Of a stretch of DNA of 64,000 nt, positions 12,535-18,461 are shown one piece after another. Within the stretch, counting starts at the first letter, position 1; each line of letters begins with the position of its first letter. The DNA lies in NCBI GenBank assembly GCA_027306785.1, contig DAHUZB010000018.1:62001-126000 (forward strand), written 5' to 3'. The stretch comes from Vulcanimicrobiota bacterium. Its GTDB lineage: Bacteria > Vulcanimicrobiota > Vulcanimicrobiia > Vulcanimicrobiales > Vulcanimicrobiaceae. The notes under the pieces were generated by a model that was given only the letters and a program-made list of their open reading frames with translations, made no database searches and was not told the origin of the DNA. A program made the position numbers and the translations under genes.

Positions 12535-13466
12535 ATGCGCGCGCGTGCGAGCAACGCTTCCTTGGCTTTGATGAGGCGCACCATCGTCTCGTTGCACGGG
12601 GTGGCGACACCGGTACGTCGCCCGAACGCGACGACCGCTCCGTTGAGATGATCGATCTCGGTCGGATGGCCCGATTCCAGATCGAACGCCATCGAGCTCT
12701 TGGAATCGGCGCCGATCTCGATCACCTGCATGACGTACTGCCACGGATTCACGAACGGCAGGCTGATCTTGAGCGCCGCGGCCACGCTCGCCGCTTCTTC
12801 GGCGAGCGATTCGGCCAAGCGCGAGGCGTTCGAATCGAGCGGGATCGCGCCCGCGTCACAATCGAGCAGCGCCGAGATCGCGTTGATCGCGGCGTTGGCG
12901 ACGAGCTTGCCCCAGAGGTGCGGTTTGATATCGTACACGACCGCGGTGCGCAGGCCCGAACGGGTGAGCAGATCGGCGATCGTGCGCGCGGTTGCGGGCG
13001 CCGCGCTCGACGATCCCAAGATCGTGTTGCCGCTCTCCGAACTGCGCACGCGCCCCGGGGCGGTAGTGAGCGACGACTCCGTGGTGATGCCGAGAATGAC
13101 CGGCACCGCGCCGCCGAGCGCCGTCTTGATCGCATCTTCGTTACCGACGCCGTTCTGCAGCGAGACGATCGGCGTGGAGGGATTCAGCTCGCCCGCGAAC
13201 GCGCGCAGCGCGCGCAGCGTATCGACCGCTTTGACGAAGAGAAAGAGCACCTGCGAGCCGTAGAGATCGCGCGCGTGCGTGGTGACGCGCACCGACCGCG
13301 GCGTTTCGTCGTTGACGGCGACGCCGCTCTGACCGATCGCGGCGATCGTGGCGGGATTGGTGTCGAGCATCGTCACGTCGCACGTCTGCGCCAGGTGATA
13401 GCCGAAGAGCGTGCCCATCGAGCCCGCCCCCACGATACCGACTTTGAGTCGTCCCTCGCTCATCAT
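12531..13466 (-). CDS. panE: 2-dehydropantoate (ketopantoate) reductase
   Basis: A 311-residue NADPH-dependent reductase of ApbA/PanE type. It has the N-terminal Rossmann motif VGIVGAGSMGTLFGYHLA, the catalytic-lysine helix (WGKLVANAAINAISALL) and a C-terminal SSMAFDLESGHPTEIDHLNG motif that binds the substrate. The reaction reduces ketopantoate to pantoate in pantothenate and CoA biosynthesis. It starts 6 bases after the mlaD stop and overlaps the FAD oxidase start by 4 bases, so it belongs to an mlaD-panE-glcD transcript. Related family members reduce other 2-oxoacids, so the pantothenate role is probable but not certain. Confidence 0.88.
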   Translation of the reverse strand: MMSEGRLKVGIVGAGSMGTLFGYHLAQTCDVTMLDTNPATIAAIGQSGVAVNDETPRSVRVTTHARDLYGSQVLFLFVKAVDTLRALRAFAGELNPSTPIVSLQNGVGNEDAIKTALGGAVPVILGITTESSLTTAPGRVRSSESGNTILGSSSAAPATARTIADLLTRSGLRTAVVYDIKPHLWGKLVANAAINAISALLDCDAGAIPLDSNASRLAESLAEEAASVAAALKISLPFVNPWQYVMQVIEIGADSKSSMAFDLESGHPTEIDHLNGAVVAFGRRTGVATPCNETMVRLIKAKEALLARARM

Positions 13467-13472
13467 ACCTCG

Positions 13473-15038
13473 TTACGGGAATTGTGCTTGGATGCCGTAG
13501 GTGAAGCGGCGCTCCTGATGGTTGAGCGCGCGTTCACCCGCGAAGAGCTTCAGTGATTTGGTCAGATTGACGTTGCCGTAGAGATCGAGCTGCGGACGGC
13601 GCGGATTGTAGAAGCGTCCGTCGATCCCGAAGAGGCCCGCATGGTACTCGCCGAGCACGCCGAGCTGCGAGTACAGGATGCCGCCGCCGAGCGTGACGTT
13701 CGGGCTCATCTTCTGCAAGAGCGCGAGGTTGGTCGTGGTGTAGTGCCCGATGTCGTTCGCGCCGACGAAGAGGCTCGTGTTGCCCTTGGGTAAGAGCACC
13801 GCGTTCAGATCGGTCTGCGGTCCGCGGTCGCTCGTATAGAGCGGATTCAGGCAGCAGGTGTGCTGCGCGGAGAGGCCGCTCATGCGCAGTTGAATCGCGA
13901 TAAGGCCGCTCGCCACGTTGGCGAGCTTGCGCTTGATGAGCAGCTCGCGCTGCTGCGGCGACGGCGTTGCGCCGCTGATCGCCGGAGCGCCCGCGGCGGG
14001 AGCCGTTCCGGGCGGTTGCGACGTACCGACGGGGTAGGGCGTGGCGTTCGCGTCGACGCCGTAGACGCTGCTCGTGCCGCCGAGCGCGCCGAGCAGCGAG
14101 TTCGCGCGCTGCATCGTGGCGTTGAGGTTCGCGACGGTGTTCTTCAGCTGCGCTTTGGTCTGCGGATCGCCGGTGAGCGATTGCAGATCGTGCGTGATAT
14201 CGGCGATGTTCTTGGTGGTTTCGGCGATGTTCTGCGTGGTCGCGAGCACGTTCGCCTTGAGGTTCGGATCGGTCGCAAGCCCCTTGAGCGAGGCCATCGA
14301 CGCGTTGAGCGCCTGCGAGGTTTGGTCGAACTGCGCGAGGATGCTCGTGATGCGCTTGGAGTTGAGCTGCGTGGTGCTGTTGAGCGTAGAGGTCATCGCG
14401 ACGATGTTGGCGCTTGCCTGTGCGAGGCTCGTCTGCAGCTCGGAGGACATCGAAGTGATCGCCGTGCGCGCGTCGCGGGTGATCGCGTTCGCGTTATCGA
14501 GCGTCTCCTGCATCGTGGCGAGCAGGCGCGGCTCGCGCGCTTGGAGATCGGAGAGCATCTCATCGAGGCGGCGGATCTCACCCTGCCCCTGCTGGAGCAG
14601 ATCGGCGATCGTGGCCGTGTTGGTGCCGTACGGCTGGTCTTCGACCGGCAGTACGCGCCGTTCGAGCATGGCGAGGCGCGGCCGCTCGCCGTTCGCGCCC
14701 TGCGGCACGATCGGGGGGACGATCAGCAGGTTGGGATCGCCGGTTAGCGGCGCCTGGATCAGGAAGCGGGAGTTGAGCGGGATATCCACGTCGCGGTTGA
14801 TCGCGAGGATCACGTCGACCGTGTTATCGGGCAGGAGCACGATCGAATCGACCGTGCCCACGGTCACCCCGCTGAAGTACACCATCGCGCCCGAATGCAG
14901 GCCCGCCGCGGACCGGAAGTGGATGCCCGTGCGGTACCCCGTGTGCCGCGTCCCAAAGTCCGTGATCACGTAGAAGACGCCGAACAGCAACAAGAGCGCC
15001 ACGAGCGCGAATGCCCCAACCTGGGCCTGCCTAGTCAT
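13473..15038 (-). CDS. mlaD: MlaD/Mce-domain lipid transport protein with long C-terminal extension
   Basis: A 521-residue periplasmic protein with one N-terminal membrane anchor (about 8-26). The MCE domain covers about 37-120 (SGAMVYFSGVTVGTVDSI). A long Gln/Asn/Thr-rich helical region follows (about 140-320), fitting the needle of Mce hexamers. A Pro/Ala linker leads to a 130-residue C-terminal part with alternating strands that ends in Phe-Pro. This substrate-binding component carries lipids between inner and outer membranes with MlaE and MlaF. Here it is cut off from mlaF by a 1.9 kb low-GC islet. A perfect 8-bp hairpin lies 28-48 bases upstream of its ATG. Confidence 0.88.
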   Translation of the reverse strand: MTRQAQVGAFALVALLLLFGVFYVITDFGTRHTGYRTGIHFRSAAGLHSGAMVYFSGVTVGTVDSIVLLPDNTVDVILAINRDVDIPLNSRFLIQAPLTGDPNLLIVPPIVPQGANGERPRLAMLERRVLPVEDQPYGTNTATIADLLQQGQGEIRRLDEMLSDLQAREPRLLATMQETLDNANAITRDARTAITSMSSELQTSLAQASANIVAMTSTLNSTTQLNSKRITSILAQFDQTSQALNASMASLKGLATDPNLKANVLATTQNIAETTKNIADITHDLQSLTGDPQTKAQLKNTVANLNATMQRANSLLGALGGTSSVYGVDANATPYPVGTSQPPGTAPAAGAPAISGATPSPQQRELLIKRKLANVASGLIAIQLRMSGLSAQHTCCLNPLYTSDRGPQTDLNAVLLPKGNTSLFVGANDIGHYTTTNLALLQKMSPNVTLGGGILYSQLGVLGEYHAGLFGIDGRFYNPRRPQLDLYGNVNLTKSLKLFAGERALNHQERRFTYGIQAQFP

Positions 15039-15065
15039 TGTCCGCTACATACTCCGAAGAGCTCC

Positions 15066-15086
15066 GCGTGCCCCGCCCGGGCACGC
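15066..15086. repeat. Perfect 8-bp stem-loop upstream of mlaD
   Basis: The arms GCGTGCCC (15066-15073) and GGGCACGC (15079-15086) flank a 5-base loop. It sits between the islet and the mlaD start and would fold in the mlaD leader. No T-run follows on the minus strand, so a simple intrinsic terminator is not supported. Confidence 0.5.
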
Positions 15087-15090
15087 TGCC

Positions 15091-15171
15091 GCATCATCAT
15101 GGGAACAGGCCTCGAGAAGGCCGGCATTCGGCAAACCACCTTCTTCGAGGCCGGCTCCCTGTTAATGATGC
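15091..15171. repeat. Imperfect long inverted repeat at the edge of the islet
   Basis: The left arm 15091-15120 and right arm 15139-15171 are about three-quarters complementary, sharing GCATCAT, GGCCTCGA and AGAAGG blocks in the same order. The repeat lies directly after the stop of the AUU-start gene and could act as a large transcription-stopping hairpin or be the end of a mobile or REP-like element. No poly-T tract follows. Confidence 0.5.
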
Positions 15172-15186
15172 CCGCGGCCGTTATTC

Positions 15187-16059
15187 CTAGTTGATCGTGA
15201 GATGGCCGTCGGGTGCCGAAAAGTTATCGGTACACCAAATCCATTGATACATGTGTTGGGTGTACGGCGTCCAATTCGTTGCGTCCCACTTTTGAAAACC
15301 TTGACGTAACGGCTGATCGCTGCCTTGCTCGCCCGTATTCGCGCCGGGTTTGAATTGGTTGAAGCGAACGTGTACGGACGACCTTGCATATTCCGTTCCG
15401 CTGCCGAACGTAAGCGGCAAGCCGATTTTCGGAATCGTGAATTTGAATTTGGTCCAATTCAAATTTCGAGCAAAACGCGCGGGGCACACAAGCCTTCCGC
15501 TCTGACCGCTTCCTTTGAAAATTGAACCGTTAAACGTCGCAAAACCGCAGACGACAGCGGCATTAATGGACACACGAAAATCCTTTGAACTCGTAGGATG
15601 TCCGTGGGCCCCGCGTTGTTCCAAGAACGCACACGGATTATTACGCCACGAACCTCCGCTGACGCTTGAAACCGGCATATCCTTCGTGAAGTTCGGAACG
15701 TCGATCTTCTCGATGTCGCTTACTATCTTTTGCCCGTTTGATAGCGAAATTACCGCCCGGTAATAGTTCGGAACCCCCGGTGCCAAGAACGTGATCGGAA
15801 TGCGCAAGCGCTTCCAACCTTTCTCGAGGCTCTGGCTCGGAGACTCGTCCGTCAGTTTATCGATCGCGGTCCCATAAAAGATTCGGGCTGTTCCGAATGT
15901 CGGGAGAGGTTTGAAAAGCCCGTCAATGATGCGCGCATCGGCAGGCTGTCCGGTCTCCCACAGGGCTATTAAGGAAAAAGAATCCGATTGTGCGTGGGCA
16001 GTGAAGGGAAACGATGCCGAAATCAGCAGCGCGCAGAGCAGCGCAAATAATTTACGAAT
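15187..16059 (-). CDS. Secreted protein of unknown function with probable AUU start codon
   Basis: A 290-residue open frame from ATT 16059 to the stop at 15187. No ATG, GTG or TTG occurs in frame between the upstream in-frame TGA and the signal peptide. The ATT has a perfect GGAGG 6 bases before it. Translated as Met, the N-terminus is a textbook signal peptide: Arg-Lys, then a hydrophobic run (LFALLCALLISA), then a cleavage site AHA|Q. The mature protein is Trp- and Tyr-rich, with several cysteines and beta-rich segments; I do not recognise it. G+C is clearly lower than in the flanking genes. It lies alone in an islet between mlaF and mlaD, which suggests horizontal gain. A less likely reading is a later internal TTG start. 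Confidence 0.65.
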   Translation of the reverse strand: MRKLFALLCALLISASFPFTAHAQSDSFSLIALWETGQPADARIIDGLFKPLPTFGTARIFYGTAIDKLTDESPSQSLEKGWKRLRIPITFLAPGVPNYYRAVISLSNGQKIVSDIEKIDVPNFTKDMPVSSVSGGSWRNNPCAFLEQRGAHGHPTSSKDFRVSINAAVVCGFATFNGSIFKGSGQSGRLVCPARFARNLNWTKFKFTIPKIGLPLTFGSGTEYARSSVHVRFNQFKPGANTGEQGSDQPLRQGFQKWDATNWTPYTQHMYQWIWCTDNFSAPDGHLTIN

Positions 16060-16328
16060 GCCACACCTCCAGGCAAGCTTGGTTATTGTGCATTCAAACC
16101 TACCCCGGATACTTCAAGTGCGTCAAGTATGACCTGTGTCAACGCTTTTGGGCGCTTCGCATCCCCGGCGCAGAGCGCCGTTAATCGGCGCATCCGAATC
16201 GCGTCGTGCACGGCGCACGTAAGCCGCCCACATTAGGGGCGGATTTACGAGCTGCGTTCGAAACGCGGTTTGTCGATTATAGCGAGCTGCGTCCGCATTC
16301 TCGCTAGCCACCCTCATGCCTACGGAAT
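16060..16328. other. Low-GC non-coding stretch with candidate minus-strand promoter elements
   Basis: No convincing gene is seen in these 269 bases. On the minus strand, upstream of the AUU-start gene, TTGACG (16121-16126) and TAGGTT (16097-16102) are spaced 18 bases apart. Further upstream is an exact TATAAT (16276-16281), with a direct repeat CGAGCTGCGT at 16248-16257 and 16283-16292. A small hairpin CGGCG-CAGAG-CGCCG lies near 16167-16181. A 64-codon frame at 16123-16317 is possible but has no supporting start signal. Confidence 0.4.
16097..16126 (-). promoter_or_regulatory. Candidate sigma70-type promoter of the secreted-protein gene
   Basis: TTGACG matches the -35 box at 5 of 6 positions; the -10 candidate TAGGTT is weak. 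The 18-base spacing is acceptable and the site lies about 40-70 bases upstream of the ATT start. It is stated as a candidate only. Confidence 0.3.
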
Positions 16329-16559
16329 TTAGAAAAGCAGATCAGATCCTAAAGGGGACGCTTTTGCGATCAGGAGCGCTTCTCCGTCGTGCGCTAATAT
16401 ATAAACACGCCGAACCGCAGCGACAACCGTCTCCATAAACGCAAGATCAACGTAGCGGCGATCATTGAAAGCAAGATCACCGGTATCGATTTGAATGTCG
16501 ACAAAGCGGTACGTCCCGATGCCTGAAACTGCAGCGACGATTTCCCTTAAATTGTTCAT
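16329..16559 (-). CDS. Small unknown protein in the islet, coupled to an upstream mini-frame
   Basis: A 76-residue frame starting at ATG 16559, about half G+C. The start overlaps the TGA of a 59-codon frame (ATGA), which in turn overlaps a 27-codon frame (TTGA). The protein alternates short hydrophobic strands with acidic turns (YRFVDIQIDTGDLAF, VYILAHDGEALLIAK) and looks like a small alpha/beta domain. No family is recognised. Either the three frames are a translationally coupled set, or they are one ancestral gene of about 160 codons broken by two frameshifts in the same direction. Coding status is uncertain. Confidence 0.4.
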   Translation of the reverse strand: MNNLREIVAAVSGIGTYRFVDIQIDTGDLAFNDRRYVDLAFMETVVAAVRRVYILAHDGEALLIAKASPLGSDLLF

Positions 16560-16735
16560 GCCGGCAAATGTATAGACTTCATGTTAAACAATAGAGCTTT
16601 GCGCTTTGAACCCGCATCAGCGGCTTCGTCGTCCACCCATCGGTCGGTCTTGCCGAATAATGTTCGCAGGTTAGCATTGTTCCAACCGTAACCGACGGCG
16701 TTTCTATCTGCGCGTATTGCAACGATAGGCGTCAA
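16556..16735 (-). CDS. 59-residue mini-frame in the islet
   Basis: This frame opens at TTG 16735 and ends at a TGA overlapping the ATG of the 76-codon frame. The translation includes IVAIRADRNAVGYGWNN and TDRWVDDEAADAG, with a protein-like composition and few Arg-rich runs, unlike random frames in this genome. The TTG overlaps the TGA of a 27-codon frame (16732-16815) in the preceding register. It is reported because of the linked overlaps, but could be decayed coding sequence. Confidence 0.3.
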   Translation of the reverse strand: MTPIVAIRADRNAVGYGWNNANLRTLFGKTDRWVDDEAADAGSKRKALLFNMKSIHLPA

Positions 16736-16815
16736 AGCGTTTTACCGTCCGCTAGGTTTGCCAGACGTAACCCATTTGCTTGGCCGCATTCATGGGTTTT
16801 CGATGAGGTTTCCAT
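16732..16815 (-). CDS. 27-residue mini-frame at the head of the islet chain
   Basis: ATG 16815 opens 27 codons ending in ANLADGKTL and a TGA that overlaps the TTG of the next frame. Read across the overlap the sequence would continue smoothly as DGKTL-TPIVAI, which is why a frameshifted single gene is the main alternative. Between this and the mlaF stop (16816-16926) nothing else is seen. Confidence 0.2.
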   Translation of the reverse strand: METSSKTHECGQANGLRLANLADGKTL

Positions 16816-16926
16816 TGAAAGAATCGGCAGCCGCCACCGAGAATGCGCTGATATCCATATCCTTCATCCTTGAATCGTTCGGACTATACGAGCGGCAACG
16901 TAGGTCATCGGTGCAGTTGTTGCGCG

Positions 16927-17682
16927 TTAGATGGGGATGGGGCCGACTTCGGAGCCTTGGAGGAACTGTTGGACGATCGGGTTGATCGAGCGTTTGATTT
17001 CGTCGACGGTACCGTACGCGATGATCGCGCCTTCGAAGAGCATCGCCACGTAGTCGGCCATCATGTAGATCGATTGCAGGTCGTGCGAGATCACCACGGC
17101 GGTGCCGTTGAGCAGCTTGCGCAGGCGCACGATCGTATCCGTGATTAAATGCGTCACGATCGGATCCAGTCCGGTCGTCGGTTCGTCGTAGAGCACGAGC
17201 TCCGGCCGCGTCACGATCGCGCGAGCGAAGCCGGCACGCTTGAGCATACCGCCCGAAAGCTCGCTCGGCATGCTGTTGAACGTATTCGCCAGGCCGACGC
17301 TCTCGAGGGCGTCTTCGACGATCTTGCGGATCTCTTCGTCGTGTAGATGGGTGTGCTCGCGCAGCGGCAGCGCGACGTTCTCGCCGACGGTCAGGCTATC
17401 CAGCAGTGCGGCGAACTGAAATGAGAGGCTGATCTTGCGACGCACCTCATTCAGATCGCTCTCGGGCATATGGCAGATATCGTGATCGCGGACGTACACG
17501 TGCCCCGCGTCGGGTTTGCGAAGGCCGTCGAGCAGGCGCAGGATCGTCGATTTCCCGGCACCGGAGAGGCCGATGATACAGGTGATCGCGCCTTCCACGA
17601 TGTCCAGATTGCAGTTGCGTAGGATCACGCGATCGCCGTAGCTCAGCGATACGTCGTCGAGGCGTGCGATGGCGCTGCGCAT
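16927..17682 (-). CDS. mlaF: Mla/Mce lipid transporter ATPase
   Basis: A 251-residue ABC ATPase. Walker A is GLSGAGKST (38-46), the signature LSGGM (142-146), Walker B with D-loop LVLYDEPTTGLD (about 162-173) and the switch histidine SHDL. The sequence between Walker A and signature (SLSFQFAALLDSLTVGENV) matches the MlaF/MkL subgroup that drives Mce-type lipid transport. The start ATG 17682 is 2 bases after the mlaE stop; in-frame codons further upstream lie inside mlaE and are not Mla-like. It powers the MlaE permease and the MlaD ring. No mlaB or mlaC gene is seen beside it. Confidence 0.92.
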   Translation of the reverse strand: MRSAIARLDDVSLSYGDRVILRNCNLDIVEGAITCIIGLSGAGKSTILRLLDGLRKPDAGHVYVRDHDICHMPESDLNEVRRKISLSFQFAALLDSLTVGENVALPLREHTHLHDEEIRKIVEDALESVGLANTFNSMPSELSGGMLKRAGFARAIVTRPELVLYDEPTTGLDPIVTHLITDTIVRLRKLLNGTAVVISHDLQSIYMMADYVAMLFEGAIIAYGTVDEIKRSINPIVQQFLQGSEVGPIPI

Positions 17683-17684
17683 CG

Positions 17685-18461
17685 TTAGTGTCCGCCGAAG
17701 AGCACGAACGAGAGCACGAAATTCGAGATGAAGATCAGGATGATCGAGGTCACGACCGCGTTGGTGGTCGATTTGCCCACGCCCGCCGCACCGCCGCGCG
17801 TCGAGAGTCCCTGATAGGCGCCGATCAGCGCGATGATGCCGGCGAAGACGAGCGACTTCAACAGACCTTTGAGGATGTCTTCGAAGCCGATGGCCTGGCG
17901 CGCCGATGAGATGAACGTGTCGTTCGAGATGTGCGCGTAGGTCTGCGCGATCCACATTCCGCCCGCGATCGAGATCACGTCGGCGAACACGGTGAGGAGC
18001 GGCAGCATCACGACGAGCGCGAGCAGACGCGGCACGACGAGAAAACGTGCGGGCTCCAAGCCCATCGAGGTGAGCGCCTCGATCTGTTCGGTGACCACCA
18101 TCGAGCCGAGTTCGGCCGCAATCGCCGATCCTACGCGTCCCGCGACGACGACCGCGGTGAGCATCGGGCCGAGTTCACGCACGCTCGCAAACGCGACCGC
18201 GCCGCCGACCAGGCTGCCGATGCCGAACTGCACGGCCTGCACCGCCGATTCGAGCGAGATCACCATGCCCGTAAAGAGCGAGGTGAGGATCACGATCACC
18301 ACCGACTGCACGCCGAGCAGGTAGCATTGACTGATCGTCTCGATGAAGCGGATGCGCAGTCGCACCAAGAACGAGGTGGACTCGCCCGCGAGCAACGTCA
18401 CGCCGCCCGCATATTCGAGCAGGTCGATCGAAGCTCGTCCCACCCGGTCGAGCATTTTCAT
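17685..18461 (-). CDS. mlaE: Mla/Mce lipid transporter permease
   Basis: A 258-residue integral membrane protein of the MlaE/YrbE family, about five to six membrane segments. Family motifs include GAVAFASVRELGPMLTAVVVAGRVGSA and EQIEALTSMGLEP, the EQ-loop-like segment that meets the ATPase. It forms the inner-membrane dimer that moves phospholipids with MlaF and MlaD. The ATG overlaps the stop of the upstream coiled-coil gene by 4 bases (ATGA), and mlaF follows after 2 bases, so the three are co-translated. Confidence 0.92.
   Translation of the reverse strand: MKMLDRVGRASIDLLEYAGGVTLLAGESTSFLVRLRIRFIETISQCYLLGVQSVVIVILTSLFTGMVISLESAVQAVQFGIGSLVGGAVAFASVRELGPMLTAVVVAGRVGSAIAAELGSMVVTEQIEALTSMGLEPARFLVVPRLLALVVMLPLLTVFADVISIAGGMWIAQTYAHISNDTFISSARQAIGFEDILKGLLKSLVFAGIIALIGAYQGLSTRGGAAGVGKSTTNAVVTSIILIFISNFVLSFVLFGGH

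What the first reader, a model, noticed from the sequence alone, without database searches (positions are those of the whole stretch)
15045..16926. Low-GC islet inserted inside the mla lipid-transport operon
mlaE and mlaF are coupled on the minus strand, and mlaD follows only after a 1.9 kb segment with visibly lower G+C, stop-rich spacers and no gene I recognise. In most genomes mlaD follows mlaF directly. The segment holds one secreted protein, three mini-frames, a long inverted repeat at its mlaD end and several promoter-like motifs. This looks like a gained islet or the remains of a mobile element. It may separate mlaD expression from mlaEF.
Basis: partly seen in the sequence, partly recalled or inferred. 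Interest (0 to 1): 0.62.

Follow-up and report, generated by a model that had tools for sequence, protein, structure and literature searches.

The report
Toxin-immunity relic inside mla operon
Between two genes of a lipid-transport operon, this uncultured bacterium has gained a 1.9 kb foreign insert holding the broken remains of a gene that probably protected against rival bacteria's toxins, plus one secreted protein with no known relatives; a sister species carries a different toxin-antitoxin pair at the same spot, so the junction is variable, but such inserts are a known kind of thing.

Summary
The islet is real. 15045-16926 has 53% G+C against 68±2% elsewhere, and DNA identity to a congener (82-86%) stops within 20 bp of both operon genes. 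In 27 relatives from other genera the mlaF-mlaD spacer is -7 to 119 bp; in two congeners it is 176 and 1137 bp. The 1137-bp spacer holds unrelated DNA, a TacA-type antitoxin and a GNAT protein. Three congeners thus have three contents at one junction.

The mini-frames at 16330-16815 are pieces of one broken gene. It is 72% identical in DNA to an intact immunity-like gene elsewhere in the same genome, which directly follows an Ntox37 polymorphic-toxin fragment. In the window copy the toxin/immunity ATGA overlap survives, but a 1-nt frameshift, a ~108-bp deletion and further indels break the gene. The rest is a 290-codon secreted orphan without relatives in 148 genomes of the phylum, and a strong, single-copy hairpin before mlaD. 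A transposon origin and a separate mlaD promoter are not supported. New member of a known kind: a decaying, acquired interbacterial-conflict islet.

The parts
15057..16930 (.). Inserted, low-G+C islet between mlaF and mlaD
   Evidence: DNA alignment to congener G001 stops at 15056 and resumes at 16931; G+C 0.532
16330..16815 (-). Immunity pseudogene: start ATG near 16793, stop after 13 codons by a 1-nt deletion, ~108-bp internal deletion, further indels, intact last 76 codons (16329-16559)
   Evidence: 72% DNA identity to the intact gene at C2:135625-136224; dN/dS 0.22/0.93 over the last 75 codons
16791..16820 (-). Last codons of a lost toxin gene, overlapping the immunity start in ATGA
   Evidence: BLASTN block matching L002 2084-1960, which spans the end of the Ntox37 fragment; short, so inferred
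15187..16059 (-). Secreted orphan protein, 290 aa, signal peptide, apparent ATT start with GGAGG six bases upstream
   Evidence: open run longer than in any of 1000 shuffles
15088..15170 (-). Long hairpin just downstream of the secreted gene and 50 bp before mlaD, no T-run; single copy in genome
15065..15085 (-). Second short hairpin (8-bp stem) between the long one and mlaD
13473..15038 (-). mlaD, long type with C-terminal barrel
   Evidence: PF02470; AlphaFold model
16927..17682 (-). mlaF
   Evidence: PF00005
17685..18461 (-). mlaE
   Evidence: PF02405

Best explanation
A horizontally gained islet in a variable spacer between mlaF and mlaD. It carries what is left of a polymorphic-toxin cassette: the last codons of a toxin, probably Ntox37-like, and its immunity gene, now a pseudogene. 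It also holds a secreted orphan gene of foreign composition, which may or may not have arrived in the same event. All genes lie in the operon's direction, so mlaD is most likely still reached by read-through from mlaE/mlaF, perhaps reduced by the hairpins at 15065-15170. Shown: insertion, foreign composition, the broken homologue of a gene that sits behind a toxin fragment, different content in congeners. Inferred: that this gene is an immunity gene, Ntox37 as the partner of this copy, the route of gain, present expression of mlaD. The role of the secreted protein is not established; the best guess is an exported accessory protein of the same kind of cargo.
For: Spacer lengths in 29 relatives. 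Sharp loss of DNA identity at both operon genes. Composition. 72% DNA match to C2:135668-135990, where the intact gene begins in an ATGA overlap with an Ntox37 fragment (PF15535, E 4.2e-6). A second such cassette lies beside it. Ntox37 at the tip of an Rhs-like protein in another family member. A different conflict module at the same junction in congener G001.
Against: The Ntox37 fragment scores 27.7 bits against a cut-off of 27.8. The immunity proteins match no curated family, so 'immunity' rests on position. No full-length toxin or Rhs core was found in the assembly. The secreted gene has no link to toxin systems other than place and composition.
Confidence: 0.75

Rival explanations
1. Remains of a transposon or MITE: the inverted repeat is the element's palindrome or end, and the small frames are decayed transposon genes.
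For: Palindrome inside the inserted DNA. The related C2 array ends in what I read as an IS3-like transposase fragment at a contig end.
Against: No second copy of the palindrome in the genome or the family beyond chance-level matches. No transposase homology in the islet. No terminal repeats or target duplication flanking it. The frames have another identity.
Confidence: 0.08
2. The islet is regulatory: it uncouples mlaD from mlaEF by a hairpin and its own promoter, kept by selection.
For: Strong hairpins 50 bp before mlaD.
Against: No consensus promoter faces mlaD. No T-run after the hairpin. Unlike content in each congener. A pseudogene makes up a quarter of it.
Confidence: 0.08
3. The secreted orphan is a new, lineage-specific Mla partner (a periplasmic lipid carrier in place of MlaC), and that is why it sits before mlaD.
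For: It has a signal peptide, is co-oriented and directly precedes mlaD.
Against: Absent from both congeners and all other relatives searched. Foreign composition. Apparent ATT start. The single-sequence fold is uninformative (pLDDT 34).
Confidence: 0.05

Closest known systems
Acquired orphan-immunity islets, e.g. SAIDI-1 of Salmonella Typhi (PMC7400221)
   Same: A+T-rich gained islet beside a core gene, with immunity genes for interbacterial toxins that the host lacks; related islets decay into pseudogenes and differ between relatives
   Different: Here one immunity gene only, already broken, inside an operon, together with an orphan secreted gene
Ntox37 polymorphic toxin cassettes (PF15535; Zhang et al. 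2012, PMC3482391)
   Same: Immunity-like gene directly after the toxin's 3' end; a relative in the family has the domain at the end of an Rhs-like protein
   Different: Immunity protein matches no curated family, whereas Imm32 is listed with Ntox37; in the window only the last toxin codons remain
TacA-TacT type RHH-GNAT toxin-antitoxin modules (PF08681)
   Same: Found at the same mlaF-mlaD junction in congener G001 (L003:8906-9787)
   Different: Unrelated in sequence to the window's islet; shows only that the junction takes up cargo

Membership tests
Horizontally gained islet | Absent from relatives at a conserved junction | tested here: met
   29 relatives
Horizontally gained islet | Atypical composition | tested here: met
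   G+C 0.532 against 0.679; third-position G+C 0.59 against 0.82-0.89
Transposon or MITE remnant | Transposase or multi-copy palindrome | tested here: not met
Polymorphic-toxin immunity gene | Lies directly 3' of a toxin domain | tested here: met
   Met for the intact homologues on C2; in the window only the last toxin codons remain
Polymorphic-toxin immunity gene | Matches a curated immunity family | tested here: not met
   No Pfam or NCBIfam match
Polymorphic-toxin immunity gene | Neutralises the partner toxin | not testable with these tools
   Bench test needed
Ntox37 | Domain over the curated cut-off | tested here: inconclusive
   C2 fragment 27.7 bits (cut-off 27.8), E 4.2e-6, positions 25-76 of 78; no domain left in the window
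Intrinsic terminator | G+C-rich hairpin followed by a T-run | tested here: not met
   Hairpin at 15088-15170 has no T-run and was not listed by the scan

The most novel reading that the evidence does not exclude
The mlaF-mlaD junction in this genus is a recurrent landing site for conflict modules (toxin immunity here, an RHH-GNAT pair in G001), which are placed in the direction of a core envelope operon and so share its transcription, and the secreted orphan is an unrecognised exported effector or immunity protein of such a module.
Probability: 0.12. Interest if true: 0.5.

Novelty: new member of a known kind. Interest (0 to 1): 0.3.

Why it matters
It shows conflict genes coming and going inside a core envelope operon of an uncultured phylum, catches an immunity gene soon after breakage, and points to a probable immunity family outside the curated ones, paired with an Ntox37-like toxin. 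It does not change how the Mla system is understood.

Tried and rejected
Mobile-element remnant: no transposase, no second palindrome copy, no target duplication. Structured RNA for the palindrome: no Rfam match at gathering score; one weak match, IhtA at E 0.49 with 21 of 76 bits, which I read as chance. A promoter for mlaD: no consensus motif faces it. Folding the secreted orphan from one sequence: pLDDT 34, no use. A weak hit to the orphan in G080 (E 0.006) covers 53 residues and lies antisense to a long open frame; rejected. Phage, plasmid and viral-contig searches with the orphan, and a plasmid search with the immunity protein, found nothing. A tRNA call at 12764-12848 has no full anticodon and lies inside a gene; ignored. 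No Rhs core in the own genome.

Full report
Setting. The window lies in a 3.14 Mb genome of 35 contigs (G000:C11). Its nearest named relatives are metagenome bins of the Eremiobacterota type. The operon runs on the minus strand as mlaE (17685-18461), mlaF (16927-17682), then mlaD (13473-15038), with Pfam support for each.

The stretch 15045-16926 has G+C 0.532, while stretches of the same length outside it average 0.679 with sd 0.020 and none falls below 0.630; all nine 200-base bins below 0.56 in the 64 kb window are in the islet. The long inverted repeat at 15088-15170 folds far better than shuffles (z -4.1 as DNA, z -5.9 as RNA for 15040-15190). The promoter-like motifs are not above chance and both are on the other strand.

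It is an insertion. I measured the mlaF-mlaD spacer in 29 relatives. In 27, from other genera and other families of the class, it is -7 to 119 bp. In the two congeners it is 176 bp (G002) and 1137 bp (G001); here it is 1888 bp. Against G001 the flanks align at 82-86% DNA identity, and the alignment stops at 15056 and resumes at 16931, that is, 18 bp before mlaD and at the mlaF stop. The spacer of G001 has no DNA similarity to this one and encodes a TacA1 antitoxin (PF08681, E 2.8e-15) and a GNAT protein (PF00583, E 3e-4). So three congeners have three different contents at one junction. Whether this is a true hotspot or two independent events cannot be told from three genomes.

The broken gene. 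The region 16357-16668 matches a second place in the same genome, C2:135668-135990, at 72%. There an intact 200-aa gene begins in an ATGA overlap with the end of an Ntox37 toxin fragment (PF15535, E 4.2e-6, 27.7 bits against a cut-off of 27.8). A second, 37%-identical gene lies beside it in the same arrangement. I read these as immunity genes by position; they match no curated immunity family, and Zhang et al. 2012 list Imm32 with Ntox37 (PMC3482391). The window copy keeps the ATGA overlap and the first 13 codons, then has a 1-nt deletion with a stop, lacks about 108 bp, and has more indels; the last 76 codons stay open at 59-64% protein identity. Over those codons dN is 0.22 and dS 0.93, so most of the divergence seems to have preceded the breakage. 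Among 117 genomes of the class only this genome has relatives of it. Ntox37 occurs in one other, at the end of an Rhs-like protein (the Rhs reading is mine, from the sequence).

The secreted gene. The open frame 15187-16059 gives 290 residues with a clear signal peptide. The open run exceeds that of every one of 1000 shuffles of the islet (largest 254 codons). No ATG, GTG or TTG lies in frame before the signal peptide; the best start is ATT with GGAGG six bases upstream. ATT starts are rare (infC is the textbook case, from memory), so a mutated start or an assembly error is possible. It has no relative in Pfam, NCBIfam, PADLOC, PDB, phages, plasmids, viral contigs or 148 other genomes of the phylum. 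Its third-position G+C is 0.59, against 0.82-0.89 for the mla genes and 0.51-0.53 for the C2 immunity genes. It is foreign by composition, but nothing ties it to the toxin cassette except place.

How it most likely works now. The recognisable cargo is dead. All parts are co-oriented with the operon, so read-through to mlaD is the simplest reading. The hairpins may lower it or mark the 3' end of the secreted gene's message, but they lack a T-run, so I do not call them a terminator. This step is inference.

Verdict. The finding is a new member of a known kind: a decaying, acquired interbacterial-conflict islet, comparable in outline with the immunity islet described in Salmonella Typhi (PMC7400221).

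Noticed in passing
window 13473-15038: MlaD is the long type: N-terminal helix, MCE domain, long helical region and a C-terminal domain that AlphaFold models as ten antiparallel strands (380-520, pLDDT about 85-93 over most of it), like the transenvelope MlaD of Veillonella parvula (PMC10665443). Conserved across 20 relatives, most ending in an aromatic residue.
   Followed up: partly
L114:8682-12607 (G000:C2 contig end): Two Ntox37-fragment/immunity cassettes stand in tandem behind a DEAD-box helicase gene, and 310 bp of the helicase 3' end is repeated between them at 96.5% identity: a possible sign of cassettes accreting at a gene's 3' end.
   Followed up: partly
L003:8906-9787 (G001): TacA1-type antitoxin and GNAT pair between mlaF and mlaD in a congener.
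   Followed up: partly
window 16057-16059: Apparent ATT start codon behind a good ribosome-binding site for the secreted orphan; unexplained (mutation, assembly error or real rare start).
   Followed up: no
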